Notes under the pieces: model-generated
The model's input: the letters and a program-made list of their open reading frames with translations, nothing else
What the model was told of the DNA's origin: nothing
Database searches by the model: none
Shown: positions 540-25,574 of the stretch, one piece after another
Numbering within the stretch: the first letter of the stretch is position 1
Layout of the letters: the number at the start of each line of letters is the position of its first letter
Program-made: the position numbers and the translations under genes
DNA from: Verrucomicrobiota bacterium
GTDB taxonomy: Bacteria > Verrucomicrobiota > Verrucomicrobiia > Opitutales > Opitutaceae
Assembly: GCA_025352985.1 (NCBI GenBank)
Contig: JANXRL010000004.1
Span: forward strand, 1 to 40,052
DNA: 40,052 nucleotides
Direction of reading: 5' to 3'

Positions 540-575
540 GTCTCTCAACTCTCAACCCTCAGCTCTCCCCTTTCC
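540..575. repeat. Degenerate heptanucleotide tract between the E1-beta and E2 genes
   Basis: AACTCTC AACCCTC AGCTCTC CCCTTTC. Confidence 0.6.
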
Positions 576-10477: not shown

Positions 10478-10501
10478 TGAGAAAGGGAAAAGAGGAAAAA
10501 T

Positions 10502-10550
10502 CGAAACACAGAACCCGAAGACCAAAAGCTAAAAGGTGCGAACTTGAAAT
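10502..10550. repeat. Degenerate heptanucleotide tract
   Basis: CGAAACA CAGAACC CGAAGAC CAAAAGC TAAAAGG TGCGAAC TTGAAAT. Confidence 0.6.
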
Positions 10551-10600
10551 TGCCACTCCTTAAGACCGCTTAAGGTTAGCCTAGGCGCACCGCCTGTAAT

Positions 10601-10635
10601 TGAGTTCTCAATTCTTAACTTTTAACTGCCAGCTC
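10601..10635. repeat. Degenerate heptanucleotide tract overlapping the 3' end of the GT26 gene
   Basis: TGAGTTC TCAATTC TTAACTT TTAACTG CCAGCTC. Confidence 0.6.
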
Positions 10636-11448
10636 AGGCAGTCGCTCGCGGCACCGCCACAGCAGCGGGGCCAGCCGCAACGCTTCCCAGTAACGACGCC
10701 AGAACCTGCGCGGATTGGAAAGCAGGCGCAAAAGCCAGCCGAGCACCAGCCGGTCCGCCCAAGCCGGTATATTAACCTGCCCTCCGGTAAGAAAAGCGAT
10801 GGCCGCACCCAGACAGAGGATACCCGGCCGATACGGCAGTTGCGCGCGCAACGTGCACCCCAGCCGCTCCTGCACACCGCCGCCGATCGCCAGCATAACC
10901 ACCTGCGGCCTCCGCGCCGACAGCCGCTCCACCAGCACCGCGTCAACCAGCTCCCCCGATGCCGGGTAAGCGGGCGCGATGTAGGTGTCGTCTTCCGTCA
11001 CCGGAAAACCTTTCGACATCAACCAAGCGCGGTTGCGCACATCGTCACCCTTCGATGGCATGACCCAAAACACCGCGCCCGGCCGCTTTAATTCCGGGCA
11101 GGCCAGCACCGCCTTCAAAAATTTGAGCCCCGAGTGCCGGGGCAGTTTCTCCCCCGTATAAAATCGCCACAGCAACACCATAAAACCGGAATCAGTCAGC
11201 ACCAGATCGGCGGTTTGCAAAGCCTCCCGGTAGGACGGCGCCCGCACGAGATCGACCGCCAGTCCCGGCGCGGACGGAGCAACCACCAAACCGCCAGTTT
11301 CAGGTTTTTTATTTCCGGCTTCAGATTCCTGATTTCCGATCGCCCGCTTGACCGCCAAGTCCACCGGTCCGATAAAAAAATCAACACCCAGAATGCGTCG
11401 GGACGGAACGGCCGGGGCGGCGTGGAGGGGATTCACTCCATCACTCAA
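10615..11448 (-). CDS. WecG/TagA/CpsF family (GT26) glycosyltransferase
   Basis: ADLVLTDSGFMVLL, GLKFLKAVL, PQVVMLAIGGGVQERLGCTLRAQLPYRPGILCLGAAIAFLTG, PAWADRLVLGWLLRLLSNPRRFWRRY (GT26 C-terminal block). Confidence 0.9.
   Translation of the reverse strand: MSDGVNPLHAAPAVPSRRILGVDFFIGPVDLAVKRAIGNQESEAGNKKPETGGLVVAPSAPGLAVDLVRAPSYREALQTADLVLTDSGFMVLLWRFYTGEKLPRHSGLKFLKAVLACPELKRPGAVFWVMPSKGDDVRNRAWLMSKGFPVTEDDTYIAPAYPASGELVDAVLVERLSARRPQVVMLAIGGGVQERLGCTLRAQLPYRPGILCLGAAIAFLTGGQVNIPAWADRLVLGWLLRLLSNPRRFWRRYWEALRLAPLLWRCRERLPELAVKS
11295..11343. repeat. Degenerate heptanucleotide tract inside the GT26 coding sequence
   Basis: CAGTTTC AGGTTTT TTATTTC CGGCTTC AGATTCC TGATTTC CGATCGC; translated on the minus strand as GNQESEA GNKKPET. 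Confidence 0.7.
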
Positions 11449-11478
11449 ACGGTGCGGCCCGCGACGTCAAACCGTCCG

Positions 11479-13446
11479 TCAACGAAGCCCATGGCTTCCC
11501 TCGCCCTCCACCTCTTTCATGAACGATAATCGCGCGTCCACCGGCTCGTTGGCTTTTCGGTAATAGAACCTGAGCTGAACCTCCCTCACATCTGCGGGAC
11601 GCAGGCGCGGATCCGCTCCGCAACGCCCCCAGAAATAGACATTGAAATCCTCTATGCCCAGCCACACGTCAGGCGAAGGCCGCGCATAATTCATCCCGAA
11701 GTTTTCCCAGATGGAGAAGCGCTGCCCTTTCTTGTCCACAAGATCAACCCGCACTAACGCGACCGATGCCATCGGCCGGTTCAGTTGCAGGCGCAGGAAT
11801 CCCTTAGCCGGCAACCCGTCCACCGCCGCCACCGCCGTCGTCGGGAGCAGCGGATCACGGCTGACCCGACCCACTTGGAAAACCCCTCCGCCCATCGTGG
11901 CGCTCGTCACCTCAAGCCCGTTCAAGGGCGTCCACGGGCCGACCGGTTTACCGGCGGTCGCCCCCCCTTCGAGAGAAACTTTGCCCGCCTGTTTCAAGGC
12001 AAGGGGCGACTCGGTAAAATCCCTCGCCTCCGGCCAGCGCTCCAACCCAAAAGCCACCGGCGAACGCCGTCCGCCTTCCCCCGTAAAAGCCGCCGCCCAC
12101 TCATCGCGAAAATACCCCTGCGCCGCCGGGCTGAACTCCACCGGCACATCGATGCGCCCGCCCGCCGCCACCACCAACTCCGCCGATTGCAACCGCCCGC
12201 CACCCGTCGCGACGAGCGACGACGACACGATCTTCACATGAGGCAACACCCCCGCCTCGATCCGGCCGCACGCGGGCTTCTGCCCGAAATTATAAACCCG
12301 CAACACGCCGCGCACCGGACCGTCCGCGAGGAAGCGGTAGGTGCCCGCGACCTTGTGCGGCACGGTGGTGGCGTTGTCCGGCATCCACTGCGTCACGATG
12401 CGATTGGACGTTGCTTCCGCCCGCACCAGCGGACGCTGCGGCCACGCATGGCCGCGCACATAATCCGCATACACATCCCAGGCAGGCAGCGTGAAATCCG
12501 CCCTGACGGTCATTGCATGCGGGTCATCTTGGTGCACGAGGATGAAGGGCATGAACACCGCCACATCTCGCGCCGCTCGCGCCGCCCGCGCCGTCTCCCG
12601 CGCAAACGCCGCCTGCAACGCCCGACGTTGCGGATTGTAGAAATTGTCTGGCGCCACCGCGTTGATCCCGCATTCCGTGATCCACATCGGCGGCGCGGCG
12701 CGCGGCGCCGCCGCTTGGCTTTCGGGAAACATCGCGCCCGGCCGGCCATGCCGCGCCGCCAGCCCCGAGGGTGGAAACGTCGCTCGCAGCAAAGCCCGGT
12801 GAGCCGCGATCACGCCGGGCAGGTCGCGGGCATGGCCGTAAAAGTGGAAATTATAGGCATCGGTGCATTCGAGCAGGCCGTTGCGTATCGCGCGCTCCAT
12901 CCATGGGCCGGGAGGCAGCGCCAGCGCACCCATCAGCACGACAGTGGTTAGCCCGGCGGCGGCCGCGCCGTCGTGCAGCCCCCAATACATCGCCTTGTTA
13001 AAGGCCGCCAGCCGGTCCGGCAGATCGCGGCAGTAGCCGACATCCGGCTCGCCCGTCATCTCCCACGCATCCACGAGCCCCGCGGCATTTCGCCCCTGTT
13101 TAAAGGCCCCGGCATAGACCGCCCGCAAGTCTTCCGGCAACTCGTTGCCCGCCTGTTCGACCCGCGTCTCAGGCGACCCGGCAAACGCCACCACGTGCAA
13201 CCCCGCCGCCTTCATGGTTCGCAGGCGGCTCAACAATTGTCTGCCGCCCTCCGTCGTTTCGTCGATCCACGCGCCCCTCTCCCGCACCCATGTCACCCCC
13301 GCGTCCTTCAGCAGCCGCACATAAGCCGTAAAGTCTCCATCGGAGGGAGAAAAACAGGTCAGGCAACCGTCAATCCCCCAGTCCGAGACGGGCGCGCCGC
13401 GCGCCACGCCGATCGCCAGAAAAAATGCACAAAAAAAACGCCGCAT
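11479..13446 (-). CDS. Secreted glycoside hydrolase-like protein (clan-A-like, PslG/GH39-like)
   Basis: Signal peptide MRRFFCAFFLAIGVARGA; GVTWVRERGAWID, WEMTGEPDVGYC (candidate acid/base Glu), MWITECGINA (candidate nucleophile Glu); C-terminal beta-rich region; in an EPS locus. Confidence 0.7.
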   Translation of the reverse strand: MRRFFCAFFLAIGVARGAPVSDWGIDGCLTCFSPSDGDFTAYVRLLKDAGVTWVRERGAWIDETTEGGRQLLSRLRTMKAAGLHVVAFAGSPETRVEQAGNELPEDLRAVYAGAFKQGRNAAGLVDAWEMTGEPDVGYCRDLPDRLAAFNKAMYWGLHDGAAAAGLTTVVLMGALALPPGPWMERAIRNGLLECTDAYNFHFYGHARDLPGVIAAHRALLRATFPPSGLAARHGRPGAMFPESQAAAPRAAPPMWITECGINAVAPDNFYNPQRRALQAAFARETARAARAARDVAVFMPFILVHQDDPHAMTVRADFTLPAWDVYADYVRGHAWPQRPLVRAEATSNRIVTQWMPDNATTVPHKVAGTYRFLADGPVRGVLRVYNFGQKPACGRIEAGVLPHVKIVSSSLVATGGGRLQSAELVVAAGGRIDVPVEFSPAAQGYFRDEWAAAFTGEGGRRSPVAFGLERWPEARDFTESPLALKQAGKVSLEGGATAGKPVGPWTPLNGLEVTSATMGGGVFQVGRVSRDPLLPTTAVAAVDGLPAKGFLRLQLNRPMASVALVRVDLVDKKGQRFSIWENFGMNYARPSPDVWLGIEDFNVYFWGRCGADPRLRPADVREVQLRFYYRKANEPVDARLSFMKEVEGEGSHGLR

Positions 13447-13505
13447 ACCCAGGAGAGTCGGCGACGCTTTCCCGTCCCGCAAGCCTCCAACTGCGATCAA
13501 AATAC

Positions 13506-13540
13506 TATGAGCTCTGGGCTCTCAGCTTCGATCCCTTACC
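13506..13540. repeat. Degenerate heptanucleotide tract overlapping a GT4 3' end
   Basis: TATGAGC TCTGGGC TCTCAGC TTCGATC CCTTACC. Confidence 0.55.
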
Positions 13541-14718
13541 TTCTCTGTCGCCATGATCTGGTAGATGTTCGCCAGCATCGAAACGGCGGCGCGCTTCGCC
13601 GTATAGCGGGCCTCAAAACATTTCCTCGCCCGCAGACGCATGGCCGCGACTTGTCCCGCGCTCATGTCCAGCCATTCGACCATCTGCCGTTCAAAATCCG
13701 GCACCGTGTCGTCCGCGGCCGTGCCCGCCCCGTCCACCACAATGTCGGCCCAGATGTTGACTGACTTGGAAATCAGCACCGGCACGCCCACCGACAGCGA
13801 CTCCGCCACTGCGATGCCAAAATTTTCCTGATGCGAAGGCAGCACGAACACTTCCGCGCATTGCAGCGCGCCCCACTTGTCGCCACCCAGCAGCAAGCCC
13901 GTCCACACGATGCTGCCGCCCACGCCCAGTTTTACCGCCAGGCGTTGCAGCCGCGCCGCATAGGCCCCGTCCGCCGGACCGGCCATGATGAGCCGCATCG
14001 CGGCGGGGTCCCAGCGGCCCGCCGCCTGCAGGCGGGCGATCGTCTTGATGATGATGTCGGGGCCTTTTTTGGGATGAACCCGGCCCAGAAACACAAATCG
14101 GCGGAACGGTTTCAGACCGGGATGTTTTTCCAGAAAAGCCGCGCCGTAGTCGATGGCGGCATCCGGAACGCCGGGCGTGCCGTAGTTCACCACGATCTCG
14201 TTGCAATCGTAGAGCCAGAAGGATTTTCGCGCCAGCCGCCGTTCCTCTTCGCAGGTGAAAAACACGCCATGGGCATCGCGCAAAACCGGAAACACCGCCC
14301 AAGGCCAGAACAACCATTTCTTCAGGTGCTTGAATGGAAAACGATACTTGAACCAGGGATCGAGCATCCCATGCGTGTAAACGTAATAGGGCGTCGAGGT
14401 TCCCCGCAGGGCGCGCCATACGCCGATGGCATTGTAGCCCCAGATGCCGTTCACGATCACCACGTCGTAGTCGCGGTGGTGGGCGCGCAACCAAGGCACC
14501 AGGCGCGGGCAATAGGCGTAGTGCGTAAACGACGGTCCCATCGCATGGACAGGGAAGCCAATCTTGTCCAACCACGGGCTGGACGGATCCTCAAGGGTCA
14601 GCACCTCGATGGTATGGCCATAGTCGGAGTTGACCCTCGACAACTGCTTTACGCCCTCGATCGGTCCTCCGGCGGCGGGATTGACACTGCCGATGACGTG
14701 AAGGATGCGGAGGGGCAT
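13522..14718 (-). CDS. Glycosyltransferase family 4
   Basis: MPLRILHVIGSVNPAAGGPIEGVKQLSR, FRRFVFLGRVHPKKGPDIIIKTIARL, VFVLPSHQENFGIAVAESLSVGVPVLIS. Confidence 0.93.
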   Translation of the reverse strand: MPLRILHVIGSVNPAAGGPIEGVKQLSRVNSDYGHTIEVLTLEDPSSPWLDKIGFPVHAMGPSFTHYAYCPRLVPWLRAHHRDYDVVIVNGIWGYNAIGVWRALRGTSTPYYVYTHGMLDPWFKYRFPFKHLKKWLFWPWAVFPVLRDAHGVFFTCEEERRLARKSFWLYDCNEIVVNYGTPGVPDAAIDYGAAFLEKHPGLKPFRRFVFLGRVHPKKGPDIIIKTIARLQAAGRWDPAAMRLIMAGPADGAYAARLQRLAVKLGVGGSIVWTGLLLGGDKWGALQCAEVFVLPSHQENFGIAVAESLSVGVPVLISKSVNIWADIVVDGAGTAADDTVPDFERQMVEWLDMSAGQVAAMRLRARKCFEARYTAKRAAVSMLANIYQIMATEKVRDRS

Positions 14719-14723
14719 TTATT

Positions 14724-14758
14724 AAAACCGAGCGGTCAGCTCCGGGTCTTCAAACCTT
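14724..14758. repeat. Short degenerate heptanucleotide tract
   Basis: AAAACCG AGCGGTC AGCTCCG GGTCTTC AAACCTT. Confidence 0.4.
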
Positions 14759-15265
14759 GGCTTGCGGAGCCGTCACGGAGGCGCAACGCGGGCATTCGCA
14801 CACGGGACGGCTTCTCGGCACGGAGAGCTGTTCAAAAGGCACCCATCGCCCGTCGCTGCCCTGCAACGAACCGCAGCCGTGGCAGACGTTCAGCAGCGCG
14901 CGCATCGCCTCCATGCGCTGCCGGTGCTGTTCCACCACATGCTTAAAGAGCAGGATAAAAACCGCGACCATCGCAAAGACCACGCCACGCGCTCCCGCGT
15001 TGTAGTAAACCACCCACGAGTAGTCGTATTGATATTGGTAACCCGTGAGAAGATTCCCCACCAACCAGAGCCCCGTCGCCAGCAGCACCGAAAAAATCGC
15101 CCCAGGCAGTCCCATGGTGTAGCTGAACGCCGCGACCGGCAGGATATAGAGTGGAAAAAGCGATACGTCGTAGCTCAGCCACATCTGCAACAAAAAGGTG
15201 CCGAGGAAAATCCCCATCGGCAGAACGACGGACATGAAAAGCCGGGAAATATTAAGAAAGCGCAT
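14750..15265 (-). CDS. Small polytopic membrane protein with C-terminal CxxC...CxxC module
   Basis: Start MRFLNISRLFMSVV; about 4 TM helices, cytoplasmic coil VEQHRQRMEAMRALL, then NVCHGCGSLQGSDGRWVPFEQLSVPRSRPVCECPRCAS. Confidence 0.7.
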   Translation of the reverse strand: MRFLNISRLFMSVVLPMGIFLGTFLLQMWLSYDVSLFPLYILPVAAFSYTMGLPGAIFSVLLATGLWLVGNLLTGYQYQYDYSWVVYYNAGARGVVFAMVAVFILLFKHVVEQHRQRMEAMRALLNVCHGCGSLQGSDGRWVPFEQLSVPRSRPVCECPRCASVTAPQAKV

Positions 15266-15272
15266 GGGGGAA

Positions 15273-15377
15273 GGGAAACCTGAGACCGAAAAGCTGAAAC
15301 CCGAGGGGTATAGATAAGAAAAGGCGAGGTATGAAGTTCCGGTTTCATATCTCAACCTTCAACTTTCAGGTTTCCCG
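15273..15377. repeat. Two oppositely oriented degenerate heptanucleotide arrays (inverted)
   Basis: GGGAAAC CTGAGAC CGAAAAG CTGAAAC CCGAGGG ... TTTCATA TCTCAAC CTTCAAC TTTCAGG TTTCCCG; the ends form an 11-bp inverted repeat GGGAAACCTGA / TCAGGTTTCCC. Confidence 0.7.
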
Positions 15378-16224
15378 GCCGCCTGGCCTGCTTCAACTCA
15401 TACTCCTTCACCACGCAGAGCAGTTCATACGTGGCGTGAAGCCGGGCGAAGTGGTAGCCCGCGCGTCCGTCCATGAAGCCCCGCTGCCAGAGATAAACGT
15501 AAAGAAACCGGAGCAGCGGACGACAAGGCAGGCGCTGCGAGAGCCGCTTGATCGTGCGGCGCACGCCCACCGTCTGTGACTGCAGGTGCCCGCTGCCGCC
15601 AGTCAGGCAACCCTCGACCGCCACGCGCGCCTCCCAGTTGGAATAGCGGTTGTGCTTCTCAATGAAGGTGGCCACGTCTGGGAACGCGTAGTGGTCCATT
15701 TCCGACAGCATGCGCGCGGTCTCACCCTGCACGACCACGTGTTCATGGACTTCGTTGTCGCCGCTCTGGGTGTCGCTGCCGGTGATTTTTTCGTAGGCGC
15801 CCAGCCGGTGGCGGAACAGGCGCAGATTCCAGTTGGGATAATAGGCGTGCTTCAGCCATGTCCCCAGAAAACAGAAACGACGGTTGATCCAGTAACCCGT
15901 CAGGCTGCCCGGGGAAGTCACAATGGCGCGCACTTCGAGCTCGGTCGTCGGCGGCAGGACTTCATCGGCATCCAAGATAAAGACCCACTCGTGCGAAAAC
16001 GGCAGGTTGCGCAGCGCCCAGTTTTTCTTTTTCGGCCAGGTGCCGTTGAAGGCGAACTGCACGACCTTGGCGCCGTGCGCGGCAGCGATTGCCCCTGTGC
16101 CATCCGTGCTCGCCGAATCGACGACGAAAACCTCGTCCGCCCAAGAGATGGCCGCCAGGCAACGGTCCAGGTTGCGCTCCTCATTCTTGGCCGGGATCAG
16201 GAAGGATACGGGAACTTTGTTCAC
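15352..16224 (-). CDS. Glycosyltransferase family 2 (WaaE/KdtX-like)
   Basis: VSFLIPAKNEERNLDRCLAAISWADEVFVVDSASTDGT, WPKKKNWALRNLPFSHEWVFILDADEVLP, RLFRH...YEKITG. Confidence 0.92.
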   Translation of the reverse strand: MNKVPVSFLIPAKNEERNLDRCLAAISWADEVFVVDSASTDGTGAIAAAHGAKVVQFAFNGTWPKKKNWALRNLPFSHEWVFILDADEVLPPTTELEVRAIVTSPGSLTGYWINRRFCFLGTWLKHAYYPNWNLRLFRHRLGAYEKITGSDTQSGDNEVHEHVVVQGETARMLSEMDHYAFPDVATFIEKHNRYSNWEARVAVEGCLTGGSGHLQSQTVGVRRTIKRLSQRLPCRPLLRFLYVYLWQRGFMDGRAGYHFARLHATYELLCVVKEYELKQARRPGNLKVEG

Positions 16225-16239
16225 GGTGACGGGATAAGC

Positions 16240-16797
16240 TTATGACGGACGACAGGTCCGCGGCTTGACCGGCTTGGCGGGGTGGCCGACGCACACCATC
16301 CAGGGAGGCGCGTCTTTCACGACCACCGCGCGGGCGCCCACGACCGCGCCCTCACCGATCGTGATTCCCGGGAGCACGAAACACTCCGCGCCCAGCCAGG
16401 CTTCGGCCCCGACCGTGATGGGGCTTGTGATCAACGGGAAACCCGGTTGCTCATGATCATGCGTGCCGGCGCAGAGATGCGCGCCCTGCGAGACGACCGC
16501 GCGCCGGCCGATCGTGATGAAACCTTGGTTGTAAAGGATCGCCCCGCTCGCGACCCCGGCGGCGTCGCCGCACTCCAGGTTCCAAGGCGCCCAAATGCGC
16601 GCGCCGGGATAGATATGCGTGCCCTTCCCCATCCGCGCGCCGAAAAGCCGGAGCAACATCGCCCGCCAGCCGTGCAACGGCCGCGGCGAGGGCCGGAACA
16701 GCGTCCAGTAAACCACCGCCCACGCCACCCGCCCGAGACGGTTCCAGAGCGAAAAACTCGGCTGCGTCCGCGCGTCATTCTTTATGGCTGCGTTCAT
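16240..16797 (-). CDS. WcaF-like colanic-acid-type acetyltransferase (hexapeptide repeat)
   Basis: ARMGKGTHIYPGARIWAPWNLECGD, TIGRRAVVSQGAHLCAGTHDHEQPGFPLIT, AWLGAECFVLPGITIGEGAVVGARAVVVKD. Confidence 0.92.
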   Translation of the reverse strand: MNAAIKNDARTQPSFSLWNRLGRVAWAVVYWTLFRPSPRPLHGWRAMLLRLFGARMGKGTHIYPGARIWAPWNLECGDAAGVASGAILYNQGFITIGRRAVVSQGAHLCAGTHDHEQPGFPLITSPITVGAEAWLGAECFVLPGITIGEGAVVGARAVVVKDAPPWMVCVGHPAKPVKPRTCRPS

Positions 16798-17513
16798 TTT
16801 TTGGCCTCCTCCTCAAGCAGGCCGGTCGGCGCAAGGCTGCGGATGATCTCCGGCCACAACGGACTCGCCGTCAGCTCTGCGATGGTGCGGTTCGTCGTGA
16901 TGCGAATGAAAAACTGTTCCCGCTGGCGGAACCCGAACCAGGTGTTGAGCTGGCTCTCCCACAGGACCGACTGTCGTTCGCGCCAGCGGCTGCTAGGTCC
17001 GAGCACGTAGCCCGACAGCTTCCCGCCCACGAGATGCCAGAACAACACCTCCTGATGAACTCCGTCCGCCGTGCTGAAATCGCGGAATTGCGCGATCTTG
17101 AGAGGCCGTCCCGCACCGTCTTCCAACCGGCTGGCGTAGTCGTGCCGTTGCTCGCGCCAGCCGGCGTTCACCCAGCAGAGGTCCGGACTGTGGATGGCCG
17201 CGTCGCTCGGGTCGATCATGCCGGGCTCCCAGTAGGCCACATAGACGCCCACCTCCGTGTTCCCCCGACGGTAGATGCGGAAAAACGCGTCGTCATAGTG
17301 CAGGATTTTTTTCACCTCTTTGCGCACCAGCTCGGTGTCGCCCATCTTGCGCTCCTCCACGTCCCAGCCCGCCACCGCCTGGGGCGCGATGTTGCCGATC
17401 GGCTGGGGCGGCGTGAAAAACGGCGCACGCTGCTTCGGCGCGAACTGTAGGCCAGTCGCGACCACCAGCAGGATCGCGGCGGAAAGGATGAGCATGCGTT
17501 GCGATGCGGTCAT
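16794..17513 (-). CDS. EpsI domain protein (exosortase-associated)
   Basis: N-terminal TM, FRIYRRGNTEVGVYVAYWEPG...IHSPDLCWVNAGWREQ (EpsI signature with conserved HSPxxCxxxxGW), VLFWHLVGGKLSGYVLGPSSRW. Start ATG at 17513 overlaps the upstream gene stop by 4 nt. Confidence 0.88.
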   Translation of the reverse strand: MTASQRMLILSAAILLVVATGLQFAPKQRAPFFTPPQPIGNIAPQAVAGWDVEERKMGDTELVRKEVKKILHYDDAFFRIYRRGNTEVGVYVAYWEPGMIDPSDAAIHSPDLCWVNAGWREQRHDYASRLEDGAGRPLKIAQFRDFSTADGVHQEVLFWHLVGGKLSGYVLGPSSRWRERQSVLWESQLNTWFGFRQREQFFIRITTNRTIAELTASPLWPEIIRSLAPTGLLEEEAKK

Positions 17514-18691
17514 GGCTTGTGAATGGAAGGGGATGCGGCCTTCGCCACCCGGACGAGCGCCTCGCGATAACACCGGTAGGCGTCCTCGATCTGGAATTCC
17601 TTGCGATAACATTTCAACGCGCTCGCACCCATCGCGGTCCACTCCGCCTTGGGCGTGGCCAGCCAGCGGTCGAGCAGCCGGCTGCAGCCCGCCACGTTAT
17701 CTTTCTCCACATAGCCCGCGCCGTGCGCCTCCACCAGGGAGTGAATGTTGACCTTGTCCGACATCAGCACCGGCAACCCGCACGCCAGCGCCTCGACCGC
17801 CGCGATGCAATAGTTCTCGGTGTAGGACGGGATGACAAAAGCCTCTGCCGACCGGAAGGCGCCCCATTTTTCATCACCCAACATGAGGCCGGTCCACACC
17901 ACGCGGTCGCGAAGCCTTTCGGGGACGAGCGCGCGCAGCACCGAGCCTTCGTTCTCGTCGTCCGGCCCCACCATCACCAACGTCACCTCGGGATGGGCCT
18001 CCGCCCGTTCTGCAAAGGCTTTCATGAGCATCCGAGCGCCTTTTTTCGGATCAAAGCGACCGAGGAACAACAGTATCCTACGCCCGCGCAAACCGGGAAA
18101 CAGTTTCAGGAAAATCTCGCGTTGCTCCTGCGAGTTTTCAGGCGGTTGCTCCAGCCCGTAGGGCACGATCTCCGCGCGCCTCCAACGCAGCGGCCACATG
18201 CCCTTGGTCGCGATCCGCTGCTCCTGCTCGGTGGTGAAGAACACCGCCGCCGCACGCCGCAGCACCCAGAATTCCGCCAGCCACCAATAGATTTGTTTTT
18301 TGAGCTGCTTGCGCCGGCTCACCTTGTTGTGCCCGGGATCGAGCATGCCATGCGTATAGACCACGTAGGGCACCGGCACCCCCGACAACACCCGCCAAGT
18401 CGCGAGGCTGTGGTATTGCCAGATGCCATGGACCACCACCACGTCGTAGTTCTTCGCATGGGCATGAAGCCACGGCTCGAGCTTCGTGGTATAGCCGTAG
18501 AAAGTTGGGCACGGCCCCAGCGCGGTCAGCGGATAGGGGAATTCCCGCGCCGATTCGGTGGAAGGATCGTCGAACGACACCACGTGCAGCCTGTCCCCGT
18601 CGCGGGCTTGGTAGCGCGCGAATTGCTCCAGCACGACCACCGGACCGCCTTGCCCGGGGTTTACCGAGGGGATGAGGATCAGGACTTTCAA
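17510..18691 (-). CDS. Glycosyltransferase family 4
   Basis: LKVLILIPSVNPGQGGPVVVLEQFARY, RRILLFLGRFDPKKGARMLMKAF, AFVIPSYTENYCIAAVEALACGLPVLMS. Probable TTG start at 18691 by alignment with its paralogue; the ATG ORF extends to 18745. Confidence 0.9.
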   Translation of the reverse strand: MKVLILIPSVNPGQGGPVVVLEQFARYQARDGDRLHVVSFDDPSTESAREFPYPLTALGPCPTFYGYTTKLEPWLHAHAKNYDVVVVHGIWQYHSLATWRVLSGVPVPYVVYTHGMLDPGHNKVSRRKQLKKQIYWWLAEFWVLRRAAAVFFTTEQEQRIATKGMWPLRWRRAEIVPYGLEQPPENSQEQREIFLKLFPGLRGRRILLFLGRFDPKKGARMLMKAFAERAEAHPEVTLVMVGPDDENEGSVLRALVPERLRDRVVWTGLMLGDEKWGAFRSAEAFVIPSYTENYCIAAVEALACGLPVLMSDKVNIHSLVEAHGAGYVEKDNVAGCSRLLDRWLATPKAEWTAMGASALKCYRKEFQIEDAYRCYREALVRVAKAASPSIHKP

Positions 18692-18829
18692 TGGGTAAAG
18701 GTAATCAAAAAAGGGACGGATGAGACCAAGGTAAGCAACAGTCACCCGTTTTAACGCTTTCTTGTCCAGTCAGCGTTTGCAGGGGGAAATGTTGAGACTT
18801 AAAACCCGGGATTTTGGCGAATTCCGGTT

Positions 18830-19936
18830 TCAGCCTTCCCGAATCAGCTCCGCCAGCCGCGCCGCATGTTTATCCCAGTTGAGTGCGCCCGCGACATAGG
18901 CGGCGACTCGCGCCTCCCGCTTCGCGCAAGCGCCGACATCCTGCCATTGATCCCAATCGCGGGGCGCACCCTCCGCGCCTGGCGACAGATCAAGCGCCAG
19001 TCCCCCCGCATCATGCCCGGCGCAACCCACCGCGCACGCGTGCGCAAACAATGCGGCCAGTGTGCCCGACTTGCCCGTCTCATCGGCGGCATAAGCGCTC
19101 AACCCCAGATCGGCCCGGACCAGTTCAACACTCACCCCCGCCGCATCTGTCGCGCCCACACGGCGGACACCCGCCCCTGCAAGCTCATCGGCCAAACGGG
19201 CGCCTTTGACCGCGAAGCGATCCGTCTCGTCCCCCGCGCCGAGCAGAACCAACTCCCCCAGCCCACCGCGATTGCGCAGCCAGGAAATAAAAAAACGGTG
19301 TGCCTTCAGCGTCCGCAACCGCGTCTCCGGCAGCCCGAAGATGACGAGACGCAGCTTCGAACGCTTGGGTCCAGGCCCATGGTTCCCGGCAGCCTCCGGG
19401 CTTATATTTGCCGGAACCGGCAGCACCGTGACATCGCACACGTCTCCCAGTTGCGCGGCGTGCCTCCCGCAATTGGTCACCACCACATCCGCCGCGCCGG
19501 CCAGCGCGCGGGCGCACCAGCGCGCAAAAGGCGCAACGATCCCGCGCCGCCTCCATGGCGGACCCTCCAGCCACGTCTCATGAAAAAACACGACAAGCCG
19601 GCGCGCCTCGCGGCCGTAAGAACTCTCGGCTTTGCGCCGCCATCGGCACAATCCGAGCACCAGCCGCCAAGGAATCCCGTCACCGGCGTAACCATACTGG
19701 GTGTAGTGGACGAACAACGTCCCCGTCTCCGGCCACCTTTTCCCGGAGGCATCAACCGGCACCGTCTTTACCGCCCAAACGGGATGAGCCTGAGCAGCCT
19801 CCGCCGCACCGGCCGCCACCCACCATTCGGAAAGTTTTTCCTCCGGCCAATGCGCCGCCAGTTGCTCCGCATAGTCCGCCACTCCGCCCGCGCGCGGCGG
19901 CAGTTCAGGGGTCACCATGTGAATGCGTCCGATCAT
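18830..19936 (-). CDS. Glycosyltransferase (GT4-like, divergent)
   Basis: MIGRIHMVTPELPPRAGGVADYAEQLAAHWP is a GT4 N-terminus; VVVTNCGRHAAQL, LRLVIFGLPETRLRTLKAH. Confidence 0.75.
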   Translation of the reverse strand: MIGRIHMVTPELPPRAGGVADYAEQLAAHWPEEKLSEWWVAAGAAEAAQAHPVWAVKTVPVDASGKRWPETGTLFVHYTQYGYAGDGIPWRLVLGLCRWRRKAESSYGREARRLVVFFHETWLEGPPWRRRGIVAPFARWCARALAGAADVVVTNCGRHAAQLGDVCDVTVLPVPANISPEAAGNHGPGPKRSKLRLVIFGLPETRLRTLKAHRFFISWLRNRGGLGELVLLGAGDETDRFAVKGARLADELAGAGVRRVGATDAAGVSVELVRADLGLSAYAADETGKSGTLAALFAHACAVGCAGHDAGGLALDLSPGAEGAPRDWDQWQDVGACAKREARVAAYVAGALNWDKHAARLAELIREG

Positions 19937-19982
19937 TAATTTCCGCAGATTAAGCCGTTTAACACTGATGGAATACCAGCTC

Positions 19983-20924
19983 CTAGTTTTTCGCCCGGAA
20001 CCGTCGCGGCCGCCATTCGCGGATACCCAGCGCGGCCTTGAGTGTCAGGCGCGCGCGCACCTGCCAGCCCAATCGGCTGCCTTCGCGCCGTAGTATTTCA
20101 CGCGCTTCCTTGAAATTCCCTGCGCGCAACCGCGCATTCACCTCGCCGCGCCACAGCCACGCTTCCTGCTCGCGGAAGCCCGCCATCTCCCGCCAGGCCG
20201 GCGACTGGCCCGCATTCCACGCCATCACCGTCAGCGCCTGGTTCACCAGCGGCGCGCACTCCGTGTATGACCCCGCATGGACACGGTAAAGAATCGGCCG
20301 CCCCGCGCACACCTCCAGGTCGTAACCCGCCGCGGCCGCCCGTAAAAAAAGATCCAGATCGGCCGCCCCGCCCGCCTCGCCGCGAAACCCCAGGCCGCGC
20401 AGCCAGGCCGTGCGATGGAGGCTCGACATGAAAGGCGGCGACGGAAACGCGTTCGCCATTTCGACCCGTTGCAGACCTTGGGTGCGTCCCTTGAGAAACG
20501 CCGCGTGCTCCCACGTGATTTCTGGCAGCGGCCGGCTCTCGACATCGATGATGTCGCGCTCGAAGGCCAGCAGGTCGCCCCGCCCCGCCTTCGCCGTCGC
20601 GAGCATCGCGGCCAGTCCGCCCGGGGCAAACACGTCGTCGTCGCCCATGATAAACAGGTAGCGTCCGCGCGCGCGTTCGACCCCGGCGTTCCAGTTGGCC
20701 GGGATGCCGCCGCCCCCCGGGATGGCGTAGGTGCGCACCTGTTCGGCCGGCAACGGCAACGCCGCCAGCCAACGCCCCGCCGTCTCCTCGCAACCATGAT
20801 AACCCACCACGATTTCCAACGCCTCGTCGCCCCGTAGTGCCAGCGACGCAAACAACTCCGGCAGATAGCGCGTCCGCCCGGCTGTGGGAATCAGGAGCGT
20901 AAGTTCGGGAACTTCGGAGGGCAT
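19983..20924 (-). CDS. Glycosyltransferase family 2
   Basis: LTLLIPTAGRTRYLPELFASLA, GGIPANWNAGVERARGRYLFIMGDDDVFAPGGL (GT-A DDD), FMSSLHRTAWLRGLGF. Confidence 0.9.
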   Translation of the reverse strand: MPSEVPELTLLIPTAGRTRYLPELFASLALRGDEALEIVVGYHGCEETAGRWLAALPLPAEQVRTYAIPGGGGIPANWNAGVERARGRYLFIMGDDDVFAPGGLAAMLATAKAGRGDLLAFERDIIDVESRPLPEITWEHAAFLKGRTQGLQRVEMANAFPSPPFMSSLHRTAWLRGLGFRGEAGGAADLDLFLRAAAAGYDLEVCAGRPILYRVHAGSYTECAPLVNQALTVMAWNAGQSPAWREMAGFREQEAWLWRGEVNARLRAGNFKEAREILRREGSRLGWQVRARLTLKAALGIREWRPRRFRAKN

Positions 20925-20941
20925 GGCGGTGAGGCTTGCAG

Positions 20942-22876
20942 CTAGAAATGGTCCGCCACTGGAACTGGCACGGACAACGGTCGCAACGTGACCCTGAACG
21001 GCTCCCGATACAACCAGCGAGCGGCGACCGCATCAAAGGAGACCGTCCGCACCTTCGCGCTTTGTCCGTGACGCATCCAGTTTTCCAAATCGGCGTTGGA
21101 TGTCAGAAAAGGATAAACCGTCACGCCTTCACCCGCCAGACGCCAGGTGAGCCGGTAAGGGGTGGGTTCCCGCGCTTCATCGGCCACCACGTTGAGCTTG
21201 ATCGATGGCAGGGCGTAGAAAAACCGCAACGCACGTCCAAGCTTCGTCAACGCCAGCTCCGCCTCCATTTGCACGGGCGCGTTGGCAGGGATGGCCAGCG
21301 GCAGCGCTTGCCCGAAGAGGACGGACTCCATCACCCGCACGGGCTCTTGTTTGTCGGATGTTTTCCCAGCGGGCGCCGCATGGCGTCTTAACAACACAAA
21401 AGACTCCACGATTTTTTCCCATTGGTAATCTTGCAGCAGGCGGGTGAGCAGGTGCAGGTTTTCTCCGCCGGCCAGACGGTTGTCGATCGGAGTCAGATCG
21501 ACAAACATCAGATCGGGTTCCGCGCGGAGAAACGCCTCGTAATCTTTCGCCGCCAACGCCGGCGTGTAGGCCGAATAAGGCTGGAGGTTGGGCAGCGGCT
21601 TGAAATCGGCGCGTGCGGCCAGCGACGCGTAGTTTGATCCATACACGCCCACCGTGGCCCCCGCCGGCCACTGCCGGTTGATCGCCGTCTTGCCCATCCG
21701 ATCCAGCGCCTCGTTCGCCGCGTCGCGCCACACGGCATGAGCGTGCCACGGGCGGACGAGCTTCGCCGTATTGCCCGCGAGGTTACCCGCAAAATCGTGC
21801 GCCCTTGCCGCCAGCGCGTCCATGCGGACCATGCACCCGATGGACAACAACGCCAGACCCAGCGCAGCCAGCGTTAGCCGCACGGACCCCGCGCGGCGCG
21901 ACGACTGCGCCAGCAAAAAGAACGGCCACACCGCGATCGCGTAAAACAACCCGGGCAAGTGGCTCCCGTCCCCGCGCACCGTGCCGTGCCTCCACGCGAG
22001 ATAAAGACAGCCTGTCGTCAACAAAAACGTCGCCCACGTTTCCCGGGACACCTTGCGCCCGCAGGTGGCCAGTAGCGAAAGCGCGCAAGTCATCGTCGTC
22101 AGCAACGCGGCGGCGAAAAGCGCCGTCCAACTTCTCCGCAGTTGCATCGCGTCGATGTAGCCGTCCGCGACTTCATACGACCAGCGCACGCTGCCGGCCA
22201 GATCGCCCCATTGCTGTCCCAGCAACTTCCAAAAAATGAGATATCCCGCCGCAAATACCCCGCCGGTGATCATCGCCGCAAAAAAATTTCGCCGCCGCAC
22301 CTGCTCCATCATCGCCACCATTAAGGCAAATCCTGCCGCGAGAAAGAGTGTGAATTTGATCAACGCCAGCGCGGTGAGCACGGCCAGAGCCAGCCCCCGC
22401 CAAGCGCGTCCGGCAGCTTCGTCAAGCAAGGTGAAACCCGCCGCCAGCACCACAAACAACAGGAAGGGATCGACCGGATCGTGGCCCTGGTTCACATAAT
22501 ATAAAAAAGACGCCAGACCGAGTGCGGTCGCGCCCAGCCAGCCCGGCAGGCGCAACGCCAGCCGGGTGACGAGCAACGCGGACGCGGCACGCGAGAGCAC
22601 CTGCCACAGCACTTGCGCCCCATACAGAGCCGGCAGTTGCACATAGTTTTCCAGGGCCCCCAGCGGACCGTAGGTGAAGATCACCTCCCGGCCAAAACGC
22701 CACCCGTGCAGTTGCGCCTGTGAAAGCAAAACCTGCCACGTCTCATCGAGTCCCACATCCGGCACCGCCGGGAAATGCAGCGTGGATAAAAACAGCACCA
22801 CCCCACCCAGCACGGTTGCCCAGCATGCACGCCGGTCGCCGGATAAAAAATAAGAAAACCACTTGGGGGGCATCAT
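20942..22876 (-). CDS. Large polytopic membrane protein with C-terminal soluble domain, possible GT-C-fold glycosyltransferase
   Basis: 644 aa, many TM helices in the first 400 aa, first extracytoplasmic loop FPAVPDVGLDETWQ, C-terminal extracytoplasmic-type region (NYASLAARADFKPLPNLQPYSAYTPALAAKDYEAFLRAEPDLMFVDL). Confidence 0.6.
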   Translation of the reverse strand: MMPPKWFSYFLSGDRRACWATVLGGVVLFLSTLHFPAVPDVGLDETWQVLLSQAQLHGWRFGREVIFTYGPLGALENYVQLPALYGAQVLWQVLSRAASALLVTRLALRLPGWLGATALGLASFLYYVNQGHDPVDPFLLFVVLAAGFTLLDEAAGRAWRGLALAVLTALALIKFTLFLAAGFALMVAMMEQVRRRNFFAAMITGGVFAAGYLIFWKLLGQQWGDLAGSVRWSYEVADGYIDAMQLRRSWTALFAAALLTTMTCALSLLATCGRKVSRETWATFLLTTGCLYLAWRHGTVRGDGSHLPGLFYAIAVWPFFLLAQSSRRAGSVRLTLAALGLALLSIGCMVRMDALAARAHDFAGNLAGNTAKLVRPWHAHAVWRDAANEALDRMGKTAINRQWPAGATVGVYGSNYASLAARADFKPLPNLQPYSAYTPALAAKDYEAFLRAEPDLMFVDLTPIDNRLAGGENLHLLTRLLQDYQWEKIVESFVLLRRHAAPAGKTSDKQEPVRVMESVLFGQALPLAIPANAPVQMEAELALTKLGRALRFFYALPSIKLNVVADEAREPTPYRLTWRLAGEGVTVYPFLTSNADLENWMRHGQSAKVRTVSFDAVAARWLYREPFRVTLRPLSVPVPVADHF

Positions 22877-22888
22877 CAGTATTAAATA

Positions 22889-22930
22889 TCGGAAGCTCTC
22901 AGCTCACCGCTTCTGGCTCAACGCTCCTCA
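22889..22930. repeat. Degenerate heptanucleotide tract overlapping the flippase 3' end
   Basis: TCGGAAG CTCTCAG CTCACCG CTTCTGG CTCAACG CTCCTCA. Confidence 0.7.
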
Positions 22931-24242
22931 TCCGATATGCGCAGTAGCCGACGTTGACGATCACCTGGTGGAACCCGATAGCCACGGCCATCACAAGGAC
23001 GCCTTGGAGGACGCCGAGATCCAGCCAGACGACACAAGCGGCCTGCACAGCTAACATGGAGGCGATACCCACCAGCGGTGGCATATGCCAGCCGCGGGCG
23101 TAACCCAGCGCGAACCCGCTGCCTCCCGCCGCCTGTAGCGTCGCGGCCAGCACCGCCAGCCGCAGCTCGGGGACGATGCCCGCGTAGCTGGAACCCACCA
23201 ACTTCAGGAGAAGCTCCGGCATCCACCAAGCCGCCAGATTCAAAGGCAGGCAAAGCGCCAGGATAAATCCCAGGTAACGCGCATAGGCGCGCGGCAGATC
23301 GGACTTGTTTTCGATGCGGGCGAAACGCGGCGCAAAAACGATCTGGTTCACCGAGATCAGCACCCCGAGCACCACCGCGATGCGGCTCAGTGCCCCGAAC
23401 TGGGCGACCGCCAGTGTGGTGCCCGCCAACGATAGGAAAAAAAGCCCGAACTGCTGGGTGAGCACGCCGTAAATCGCGCTCGGCAGGGCACGGCGCACCA
23501 CCGCGAGGATCGAAGCCTTCATCTCCGGGATGTGAGCTTCCGAGTTCTTGGCTTGTGCAACTTTTAGCCCTAAGCTCTCGGCCTTTAACTTCGGCTTTTT
23601 TTCCTCGACATAGCCGGCTCCCGCCCGGCCGATTTGCCAGCTCGCCCACGCCTGCGCCAGCCCCGTGGCCAGCAGCGCGACCACGCCGATCGGGCAGAAC
23701 GCCAGCGCCAGCCCGGTCAAGGCCGCGCGCCCCGCCGCTTGGATGATGGCGACGCGCTGGGTCACGCGCAGCACTTCATGCAGGCGCAACGGTATTTCCC
23801 ACACCAACTGCCCCAGCCCGGCGACAAAGGCGGCGGCCACCGCCACCGTCCAAAGGACAATTTGCCCCCCGCCCGCCCCGCGCTGGTGGAGCAACGCGGC
23901 CAGCACCGGGAGTGCGACGAGGGCGACCATCCAAGCCCGGCGGCGGCGCAGCTCCCGGGCCGTATTTAAGACCGCGCCCAGCTCCGCCGGCTCGCGCCAG
24001 CATTGCCCGCCCAGCGCCATCGCTCCGGCGACGATGCCCGCGTCACCGAGCAACACCATAACGCCCAGCACCGAAGTCGCGATCGTGTAGAGCGCGTATT
24101 GCTCGGGCGGCAACGAACGCACGACCCAGAGCCCCGTGACCAAAGACAACGCCATCGCCACCCCTTGGGCTGCGATGACCCCCACGATCGGGCGCGCCGC
24201 ACGGTGCCACGCTTGGAGAGCATTTGAATTACGGGCGGACAT
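22899..24242 (-). CDS. Polysaccharide flippase (Wzx-like, MOP superfamily)
   Basis: About 12-14 predicted TM; IVGVIAAQGVAMALSLVTGLWVVRSLPPEQYALYTIATSVLGVMVLLGDAGI typical Wzx N-terminus. Confidence 0.85.
   Translation of the reverse strand: MSARNSNALQAWHRAARPIVGVIAAQGVAMALSLVTGLWVVRSLPPEQYALYTIATSVLGVMVLLGDAGIVAGAMALGGQCWREPAELGAVLNTARELRRRRAWMVALVALPVLAALLHQRGAGGGQIVLWTVAVAAAFVAGLGQLVWEIPLRLHEVLRVTQRVAIIQAAGRAALTGLALAFCPIGVVALLATGLAQAWASWQIGRAGAGYVEEKKPKLKAESLGLKVAQAKNSEAHIPEMKASILAVVRRALPSAIYGVLTQQFGLFFLSLAGTTLAVAQFGALSRIAVVLGVLISVNQIVFAPRFARIENKSDLPRAYARYLGFILALCLPLNLAAWWMPELLLKLVGSSYAGIVPELRLAVLAATLQAAGGSGFALGYARGWHMPPLVGIASMLAVQAACVVWLDLGVLQGVLVMAVAIGFHQVIVNVGYCAYRMRSVEPEAVS
23559..23600. 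repeat. Degenerate heptanucleotide tract inside the flippase coding sequence
   Basis: AACTTTT AGCCCTA AGCTCTC GGCCTTT AACTTCG GCTTTTT; minus-strand protein KKPKLKA ESLGLKV AQ... Confidence 0.7.
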
Positions 24243-24255
24243 GATGGGATTGGGC

Positions 24256-24332
24256 GAAGAGCGTTAAGGCTATGAACGGTTAGCTAATCGCCTTTAGCTC
24301 CGAGCTTCTAGCTCTTACCTTTAATTCAACTC
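24256..24332. repeat. Degenerate heptanucleotide tract between divergent flippase and GT4 genes
   Basis: GAAGAGC GTTAAGG CTATGAA CGGTTAG CTAATCG CCTTTAG CTCCGAG CTTCTAG CTCTTAC CTTTAAT TCAACTC: about 11 in-phase units. Confidence 0.75.
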
Positions 24333-24377: not shown

Positions 24378-25574
24378 ATGAAAATCGCGCTTTGGAACAA
24401 CTTGCCCAGCGGAGGAGCCAAGCGGGCTTGGTTCGAAATCGCTTCGGCACTCGTCGCGAGCGGACATCAACTCGAATCCTGGTGTCCACCGACCGCTGAT
24501 CGCGATTTTCTCCCGCTGGCTTCCCTCATGCCCGAGCACGTGATGCCGTATGCGCCCCCGCGGCCGCGAGGGTGGCAGAAACTGGTTCCCGGACCATGGG
24601 GGTATGGCCGCCACCTGCGGGCCATGGACCGACACGCCCGCGCCTGCGCCGAGGCCATCAATACGGGCGGGTTTGATGTGGTTTTGGCCGCCAATTGTCA
24701 GGACCACGGCGTCACCTCCGTCGCTCGTCATGTGAAAATGCCGGCGGTCATTTATTGCCAGGAGCCGAAACGAGATCGCTACGAGGCCACCCTCGGCGGA
24801 GAAGAAACGGTCACCGGCTTGCGGGCCACCGGGGCGATTCAGGCGTTGAATCATTTTTGGCGAGACGTGGATATCCGGCACGAGCGTTTGAATATCAGGG
24901 CTTTCAACCGAGTGCTGGTCAATTCGGCCTTTAGCCGCGAAAGCGTCCTGCGCAGCTACGGGTGCGAATCGCATGTCTGTCCTCTCGGTATTAACACGAA
25001 TTTATTTCGTCCGACCGGAGTCGCACGCGAGCACTTCGTGCTCGGCCTCGGCGCGCTCCAGCGGCACAAAGATCCCGCCACCGCCATCGACGCGGTGGCT
25101 TCGATTCCAGAGGCGGAGCGACCCGAGTTGGTATGGATAGGCAACATGGCTGATGAAATTTATATCGCTGAACTCACCGCACGCGCCACGAGACTCGGCG
25201 TCCGGTTTTCCCCGCGGACGATGGTTTCGGACGCCGAGCTGGTGGACACCCTGAACCGCGCTGCCGTCCTGCTCTGCACCTCGCGCTTGGAGCCGTTCGG
25301 TTTTGCTCCGCTCGAAGCCAACGCATGCGGGACGCCCGTGGTAGCGGTAGCCGAAGGTGGCGTCCGCGAGACCGTGCGGACGGATTTTAACGGCCTGCTG
25401 GTCCCCGACCGCGACCCGCAGGAGCTGGGACGTGCGCTGCTCGCTTTGCTGCGCGATCCGGAGCGTGCCCGGCGACTTGGAGAAAACGGCCGCGCTTGGG
25501 TGAAAGAAGCATGGACTTGGAAAGCCTGCGTGGACCGCATTGAAACCGAGTTGGGGAAAGCTATTAGCTTCTGA
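24378..25574 (+). CDS. Glycosyltransferase family 4
   Basis: MKIALWNNLPSGGAKRAWFEIASALVASGH, FVLGLGALQRHKDPATAIDAVA, AVLLCTSRLEPFGFAPLEANACGTPVVAVAEGGVRETV. Confidence 0.95.
   Translation: MKIALWNNLPSGGAKRAWFEIASALVASGHQLESWCPPTADRDFLPLASLMPEHVMPYAPPRPRGWQKLVPGPWGYGRHLRAMDRHARACAEAINTGGFDVVLAANCQDHGVTSVARHVKMPAVIYCQEPKRDRYEATLGGEETVTGLRATGAIQALNHFWRDVDIRHERLNIRAFNRVLVNSAFSRESVLRSYGCESHVCPLGINTNLFRPTGVAREHFVLGLGALQRHKDPATAIDAVASIPEAERPELVWIGNMADEIYIAELTARATRLGVRFSPRTMVSDAELVDTLNRAAVLLCTSRLEPFGFAPLEANACGTPVVAVAEGGVRETVRTDFNGLLVPDRDPQELGRALLALLRDPERARRLGENGRAWVKEAWTWKACVDRIETELGKAISF

What the first reader, a model, noticed from the sequence alone, without database searches (positions are those of the whole stretch)
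10502..24332. Family of degenerate heptanucleotide-period tracts scattered through the polysaccharide locus
At least nine tracts (540-575, 10502-10550, 10601-10635, 11295-11343, 13506-13540, 15273-15377, 22889-22930, 23559-23600, 24256-24332) share an exact 7-nt phase but little exact sequence identity. Units look like CTNNNAG, RRCYYTN or NNGAAAC and their complements. Clearest case is 24256-24332 with about 11 consecutive in-phase units. The 7-nt spacing is not a codon period, so coding bias does not explain it. It resembles the STRR heptanucleotide repeats known from cyanobacteria, but the words differ. Function unknown; candidates are RNA-level pausing, recombination seeds for shuffling glycan genes, or decayed mobile repeats.
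Basis: partly seen in the sequence, partly recalled or inferred. Interest (0 to 1): 0.72.

Follow-up and report, generated by a model that had tools for sequence, protein, structure and literature searches.

The report
Periodic-arm hairpins between operon genes
The odd 7-letter rhythm in this bacterial DNA is real: it marks worn-down arms of small hairpin elements that sit between neighbouring genes of an operon throughout the family Opitutaceae, and related species carry completely different versions at the same spot, which suggests that the shape rather than the sequence is what is kept.

Summary
All nine tracts are period-7 (shuffle P about 0.001 or lower each; other periods near background) and share one heptamer once oriented, Y-A-R-Y-T-Y-T (CAGCTTT/CAACTCT). 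They are not specific to the polysaccharide locus. In unselected Opitutaceae DNA, period 7 alone is clearly enriched, mainly in gaps between codirectional genes (47/619 versus 0.6 expected). The tracts are mostly arms of intercistronic stem-loops: stop codon, purine-rich periodic arm, loop, complementary pyrimidine-rich arm, 2-18 nt, start codon. Intact copies occur in relatives (fold z about -9); the window's copies are decayed (one clean hairpin, 15266-15380). Words differ by genome (CTACTCR, CATTGGN, CAGCTYT; also 8- and 9-mers). At pstB-phoU, 10 of 12 congeneric genomes carry a periodic tract or stem-loop, of at least five word families, between genes 78-90% identical; two control junctions have none. 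Two window tracts lie inside genes; the WecG one is an in-frame loop insertion absent from several relatives. Closest known: cyanobacterial STRRs, TAACTGA repeats of Beggiatoaceae, and REPINs; each fails a defining feature. Best reading: dispersed, interchangeable intercistronic stem-loops in an SD-poor lineage; spread mechanism and function are inferred. New variant of a known kind.

The parts
540..575 (+). Pyrimidine-type period-7 arm (CAACTCT/CAGCTCT) filling the gap between the E1-beta stop (526) and the E2 start (580) of the pyruvate dehydrogenase operon; no purine arm here
   Evidence: score 0.65, P 0.00005; the same junction is periodic in 30 of 57 family loci scored (20 at period 7); E2 is Pfam 2-oxoacid_dh
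10601..10635 (-). Purine-type arm, read on the minus strand, at the 3' end of the WecG-like gene 10615-11448(-)
   Evidence: P 0.0002
10480..10550 (-).
   Evidence: arms partly pair, but the fold is no more stable than shuffles (z -0.3)
11295..11343 (-). Period-7 tract inside the WecG-like gene: in-frame insertion encoding ~NQESEAGNKKPET in a length-variable loop
   Evidence: P 0.00005; alignment of 12 sequences, several of which lack any insert
13506..13540 (-). Purine-type arm overlapping the stop codon of the glycosyltransferase gene 13522-14718(-)
   Evidence: P 0.00005; local hairpin z -3.2
15338..15377 (-). Purine-type arm (read on the minus strand) at the stop of gene 15352-16224(-)
   Evidence: pairs with 15273-15308
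15273..15308 (-). Pyrimidine-type arm about 7 nt before the ATG at 15265 of gene 14750-15265(-); the best preserved stem-loop in the window
   Evidence: stem-loop 15266-15380, MFE -39.9, z -3.7
22889..22930 (-). Purine-type arm at the stop of the flippase-like gene 22899-24242(-), flanked by ATATCGGA/TCCGATAT
   Evidence: P 0.0001; fold z -0.9
23559..23600 (-). Weak period-7 tract inside the flippase-like gene, purine-rich on the sense strand
   Evidence: score 0.45, P 0.0011
24256..24332 (.). Inverted pair (arms 24256-24285 and 24285-24332) between the start of gene 22899-24242(-) and the divergent gene 24378-25574(+); decayed
   Evidence: P 0.00005; fold z -0.6

Best explanation
The tracts are mostly decayed arms of small dispersed inverted-repeat elements that occupy gaps between codirectional genes. 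Intact form: stop codon, purine-rich arm of tandem 7-mers (other families 8- or 9-mers), unique loop of about 20-130 nt, complementary pyrimidine-rich arm, 2-18 nt, start codon. SHOWN: periodicity, arm pairing, orientation and position relative to stop and start, genome-specific word families, replacement at orthologous junctions, junction specificity. INFERRED: (1) elements spread by copying an existing word family within a genome, since one word recurs with the same non-repeat flank but unrelated loops; (2) units then decay by point mutation, giving the degenerate tracts of this genome; (3) at the RNA level the stem-loop separates two cistrons while the G-poor pyrimidine arm gives an open, Shine-Dalgarno-free entry region before the start, so many words are interchangeable and selection keeps the architecture at certain junctions (pdh, pst). 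In-gene tracts are copies tolerated in loops.
For: Period 7 alone enriched in unselected family gaps: codirectional 47/619 versus 0.6 shuffled; divergent 6/214; convergent 6/167. Junction specificity: E1-beta 17/49 and E2 20/57 period-7 versus about 0.3 expected; gene after E2 0/23. pstB-phoU periodic in 10/12 congeneric genomes with at least five word families; two control junctions 0/11 and 0/12 at period 7 (genes identified). Word families with clean reversed-pattern controls: CTACYCR 131 matches in G004, 129 in G007, 2 in own; CATTGGN 156 in G009, 119 in G002, 0 in G010. All 17 CTAC-type hairpins examined that could be oriented have one orientation to a downstream start 2-18 nt away, nearly all with CGAGCAT after the purine arm and with unrelated loops. 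Inverted gap ends 15/294 versus 0.4 expected and 3 direct. Fold z -8.6 (G007) and -9.1 (G009). SD motifs at shuffled level in the family.
Against: No RNA or protein data. Most window copies no longer fold better than shuffles. Only about 5% of longer codirectional gaps show strongly inverted ends. Many tracts are single pyrimidine arms, which need no stem-loop. pstB-phoU was chosen because one genome had an element, and the controls because the own genome had none. No mobilising enzyme identified: Y1 transposase counts do not follow element counts. Gene calls were home-made.
Confidence: 0.55

Rival explanations
1. Plain heptanucleotide microsatellites: arrays are born by replication slippage, which favours 7-nt units in bacteria, survive only where coding allows, and decay. 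The pairing of arms is secondary.
For: Heptamer SSRs are over-represented in many bacteria and slippage has been proposed (PMC4692102). Perfect long arrays exist in relatives (G052, G016). Copy number differs at the E2 junction in the genus (about 1.5, 4 and 5 units). Mismatches between units show only a mild transition excess, as expected of ordinary decay.
Against: Does not by itself explain complementary arms at both ends of one gap, a shared non-repeat flank CGAGCAT and one orientation in 17/17 copies, 8- and 9-mer families with the same layout, or the swap of words at one junction within a genus.
Confidence: 0.22
2. They are REPINs: pairs of GTAG-tagged REPs moved by a RAYT (Y1) transposase.
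For: The CTAC family begins AAGTAG and ends CTACTT; conserved ends with a spacer resemble REPINs (PMC3116915); Opitutus terrae is rich in GTAG repeats (PMC3733652); Y1 transposases occur in 41/56 relatives.
Against: An arm is a tandem 7-mer array with no palindrome of its own; CATTGGN, CAGCTYT and CACGAAACA families lack GTAG; G006 and G012 have 52 and 71 CTAC matches but no Y1 hit, while G018 has 13 Y1 hits and no CTAC match.
Confidence: 0.1
3. They are binding sites of an RNA-binding protein or ribosomal component that reads a 7-nt period near start codons, as proposed for TAACTGA repeats in Beggiatoaceae; stem formation is incidental.
For: Strong placement just before start codons, SD-poor context, and reversed orientation inside ORFs, all as in BOGUAY (PMC4679880; here).
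Against: Words differ completely between congeneric genomes at one junction and the period itself varies (7, 8, 9), which one sequence-specific reader would not tolerate.
Confidence: 0.12
4. Chance periodicity picked out by eye.
Against: Per-tract P of about 0.001 or lower; orthologous junctions show lag 7, 14 and 21 peaks of z 14.8, 8.4 and 4.9.
Confidence: 0.01

Closest known systems
TAACTGA heptamer direct repeats of marine Beggiatoaceae (MacGregor 2015, PMC4679880)
   Same: Tandem 7-mers mostly between genes, oriented towards and ending just before a start codon, mostly without a ribosome binding site; in-ORF copies are in reverse orientation.
   Different: There one word and almost no inverted repeats; here many genome-specific words, degenerate units, 8- and 9-mer families, complementary arms at both ends of a gap, and replacement between congeners.
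Cyanobacterial STRRs and G-rich heptamers of Nostoc and Xanthomonas (PMC4692102)
   Same: Short tandem 7-mers in intergenic DNA, some heterogeneous (GGGANTN)n, variable in copy number between relatives, sometimes as inverted repeats.
   Different: Those words are G-rich and quadruplex-forming; the words here are not; the stop-to-start stem-loop layout was not found described in the passages read.
REPINs / GTAG-tagged REPs (PMC3116915, PMC3733652)
   Same: Dispersed short hairpin elements with conserved ends and a spacer, mostly outside genes, in families whose numbers differ between strains.
   Different: REPs have their own palindromic core and a linked RAYT; the arms here are tandem arrays without a core, in several unrelated word families, with one orientation to the downstream start.

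Membership tests
Heptanucleotide simple sequence repeats (STRR-like) | Tandem units of exactly 7 nt | tested here: met
   Lag 7/14/21 peaks in all tracts and at orthologous junctions
Heptanucleotide simple sequence repeats (STRR-like) | Near-identical units within an array | tested here: not met
   Window tracts about 53% match between neighbouring units; relatives' arrays 71%
Heptanucleotide simple sequence repeats (STRR-like) | Known cyanobacterial STRR words | tested here: inconclusive
   Window consensus is YARYTYT; no full list of STRR words was at hand
TAACTGA repeats of Beggiatoaceae | The word TAACTGA | tested here: not met
   Words found are CAGCTYT, CTACTCR, CATTGGN, CTTANNG, CGAWCTS
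TAACTGA repeats of Beggiatoaceae | Located just upstream of start codons, poor in RBS | tested here: met
REPIN / REP | Each unit has an imperfect palindromic core | tested here: not met
   Arms are tandem 7-mers without internal palindrome; pairing is only between arms
REPIN / REP | GTAG tag at one end | tested here: inconclusive
   Present in the CTAC family only; absent in CATTGGN and CAGCTYT
REPIN / REP | Associated RAYT transposase | tested here: inconclusive
   Y1 hits do not follow element counts, but the genomes are incomplete
REPIN / REP | Transposition or excision observed | not testable with these tools
   Needs population sequencing
Rfam RNA families | Match at gathering score | tested here: not met
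   No match in the window; only tRNAs in 17 element-bearing loci

The most novel reading that the evidence does not exclude
Opitutaceae operons use a class of interchangeable intercistronic modules, stem-loops whose arms are tandem 7-, 8- or 9-mers, whose architecture is under selection at particular junctions while their sequence is replaced wholesale by unrelated word families between congeneric species. They form a mobile or copy-spreading class of intercistronic element not described so far, and part of how an SD-poor lineage arranges its operons.
Probability: 0.4. Interest if true: 0.8.

Novelty: new variant of a known kind. Interest (0 to 1): 0.62.

Why it matters
Heptamer arrays have been noted in cyanobacteria, Xanthomonas and Beggiatoaceae for years without an accepted role. 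Here orthologous operon junctions in one genus show the shape kept and the sequence swapped, which separates architecture from sequence and makes function testable with simple reporters. It also bears on how spacers in operons turn over and on start-site choice in a lineage whose codirectional starts show no more Shine-Dalgarno motif than shuffled sequence.

Tried and rejected
De novo cyclic-profile EM on own-genome intergenic DNA found only composition (AT-rich) and no period. The profile from the nine tracts, against column-permuted profiles on held-out own-genome gaps, gave no significant excess, so this genome has few other tracts. Averaged lag spectra over all own-genome gaps show nothing. 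The reversed-pattern control for YARYTYT is not clean, because AA words fit both readings. A protein scan with the flippase found no relatives. A first test of inverted gap ends was spoiled by overlapping ends in short gaps and was repeated on gaps of 112-350 nt. RAYT as mover: counts do not agree. Selection on wobble pairing: transitions among unit mismatches are 0.45-0.58, no more than a mutation bias could give. A stop codon in all frames as the reason for period 7 was considered; it fits several words but not CGAACTC or the 9-mers, and was dropped.

Full report
OBSERVATION. The window is bases 1-40052 of contig C18 of a 2.88 Mb, 199-contig assembly whose nearest named relatives are Opitutaceae, Verrucomicrobiota. 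All nine tracts are period-7. The combined match at lags 7, 14 and 21 is 0.40-0.65 against 0.25-0.35 in shuffles, with P between 0.00005 and 0.0011; other periods stay near background; at most 0.5% of same-length intergenic windows elsewhere in the genome score as high. Oriented and phased, the tracts share the heptamer [CT]A[GA][CT]T[CT]T. Some listed tracts are inverted pairs rather than single arrays. Two lie inside genes.

NOT A POLYSACCHARIDE FEATURE. Tract 540-575 lies between E1-beta and E2 of pyruvate dehydrogenase. At that junction in some 60 relatives, fetched by the E2 protein and not by periodicity, lag-7, 14 and 21 matches stand at z 14.8, 8.4 and 4.9, yet the words differ: CAACTCT, CTTANNG, CGAACTC, CTTCTGA, CTACTCG, and also 8-mers, 6-mers and 9-mers. 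The E1-beta junction is similar (17/49 at period 7), while the gene after E2 has none (0/23). Over all unselected gaps, only period 7 is clearly enriched: 47 of 619 codirectional gaps against 0.6 in shuffles; divergent 6/214 and convergent 6/167.

ARCHITECTURE. Whole-genome searches show genome-specific words with clean reversed controls: CTACYCR in triplicate gives 131 matches in G004 and 129 in G007, but 2 in the window's own genome; CATTGGN gives 156 in G009, 119 in G002 and 0 in G010 (overlapping matches are counted separately, so these are not element counts). Hits often come as inverted pairs. In the CTAC hairpins examined in G032 and G034 the sense-strand order is always the same (17 of 17): purine arm beginning near AAGTAG, then in nearly all CGAGCAT, then a loop unrelated between copies, then the pyrimidine arm often ending CTACTT, then a start codon 2-18 nt on, usually with an upstream reading frame ending near the first arm. 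Among unselected codirectional gaps of 112-350 nt, the two ends are inverted repeats in 15 of 294 against 0.4 expected from mixing gaps and 3 for direct repeats. This goes with periodicity: 7 of 34 gaps with period 7, 3 of 15 with period 8 and 5 of 27 with period 9 (classes overlap) have inverted ends, against 3 of 229 without any of these periods. Folding is strong in recent copies (z -8.6 and -9.1) and weak in most window copies, apart from 15266-15380 (z -3.7) and 13490-13545 (z -3.2).

TURNOVER. At pstB-phoU (PhoU and an ABC ATPase by Pfam) in 12 congeneric genomes, with phoU 78-90% identical in nucleotides to the G007 copy, three genomes carry CTAC hairpins with different loops, two a 9-mer CACGAAACA hairpin, others different 7-, 8- or 9-mer arms, the window's own genome a degenerate CTAGNNC tract, and two have none or only remnants. 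Two control junctions, chosen because the own genome had no tract, show no period-7 tract in 11 and 12 genomes. The E2 junction of the same genus likewise shows about 1.5, 4 and 5 units of CTCTCAA, a CTACTCR array, an 8-mer array, a 9-mer hairpin, or nothing.

IN-GENE COPIES. Tract 11295-11343 is an in-frame insertion in a hypervariable loop of a WecG-like protein; L070, L072 and L073 lack any insert and others have unrelated ones. On the sense strand it is purine-rich, encoding polar residues. The tract 23559-23600 in the flippase-like gene has the same strand sense but could not be compared, as no relative was found.

WORKING MODEL. Shown: periodicity, pairing of arms, placement, orientation, word families, replacement. 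Inferred: spread by copying within a genome, then decay; function as an intercistronic RNA stem-loop whose pyrimidine arm leaves an open, SD-free start region. In the family the SD motif before codirectional starts is at shuffled level (4.7% versus 5.2%; E. coli sample of 14 gaps 43%), and periodic gaps are poorer in G and richer in pyrimidines. Purine-first, pyrimidine-second is a property of the palindrome on both strands, so that order alone does not show orientation; the CGAGCAT flank does. An out-of-frame ATG that the reverse orientation would place before the start (ATGCTCG) could explain the orientation by selection alone.

KNOWN RELATIVES. TAACTGA repeats (PMC4679880) share position and RBS poverty but are one word almost without inverted repeats. 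Heptamer SSRs of Nostoc and Xanthomonas (PMC4692102) share the unit length. REPINs (PMC3116915, PMC3733652) share hairpin and spacer, but their palindromic core is missing here and Y1 transposase counts do not follow element counts. Rfam has no match.

LIMITS. About 20% of the own genome and samples of relatives were read; gene calls and starts came from a simple codon-usage caller; several genomes are incomplete metagenome assemblies; pstB-phoU was chosen on one positive genome; the E2 junction was chosen because the window has a tract there.

Noticed in passing
L005:3321-3393 and L307-L317, upstream of panB (ketopantoate hydroxymethyltransferase): A conserved motif, roughly GAGTTGGCTTTTGCC...GACCTGCGAGAGT, stands just before the start in most of 12 congeneric genomes; no Rfam family matches. 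Possible unrecognised leader RNA.
   Followed up: partly
codirectional gaps of all sampled Opitutaceae: Shine-Dalgarno-like motifs before starts are at shuffled level (4.7% versus 5.2%), against 43% in a small E. coli sample.
   Followed up: partly
L034:4454-4572 and L012:17683-17846 (own genome): Stem-loops in codirectional gaps with 9-mer (CACGGAACA-like) and 8-mer (GGAAAGCT/GGAAATCA-like) arms, same layout as the 7-mer elements.
   Followed up: partly
L016:5726-5814 (own genome): Inverted pair TGTAGGAGCCTGCTTGCAGG...CCTGCAAGCAGACTTCTACA in a codirectional gap; looks like a GTAG-tagged REP doublet.
   Followed up: no
L041:5319-5353 (own genome, contig C74): The best period-7 array of the own genome sample, AAAAGCTGAGAGCTAAGAGCTGAGAGCTGAGAGCT, lies at the 3' end of a predicted gene.
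   Followed up: no
G016:C1:716875-717013 and G052:C1:2383530-2383613: Long perfect heptamer arrays (CATTGGT, CAGCTCT) of more than ten units, apparently recent expansions.
   Followed up: no
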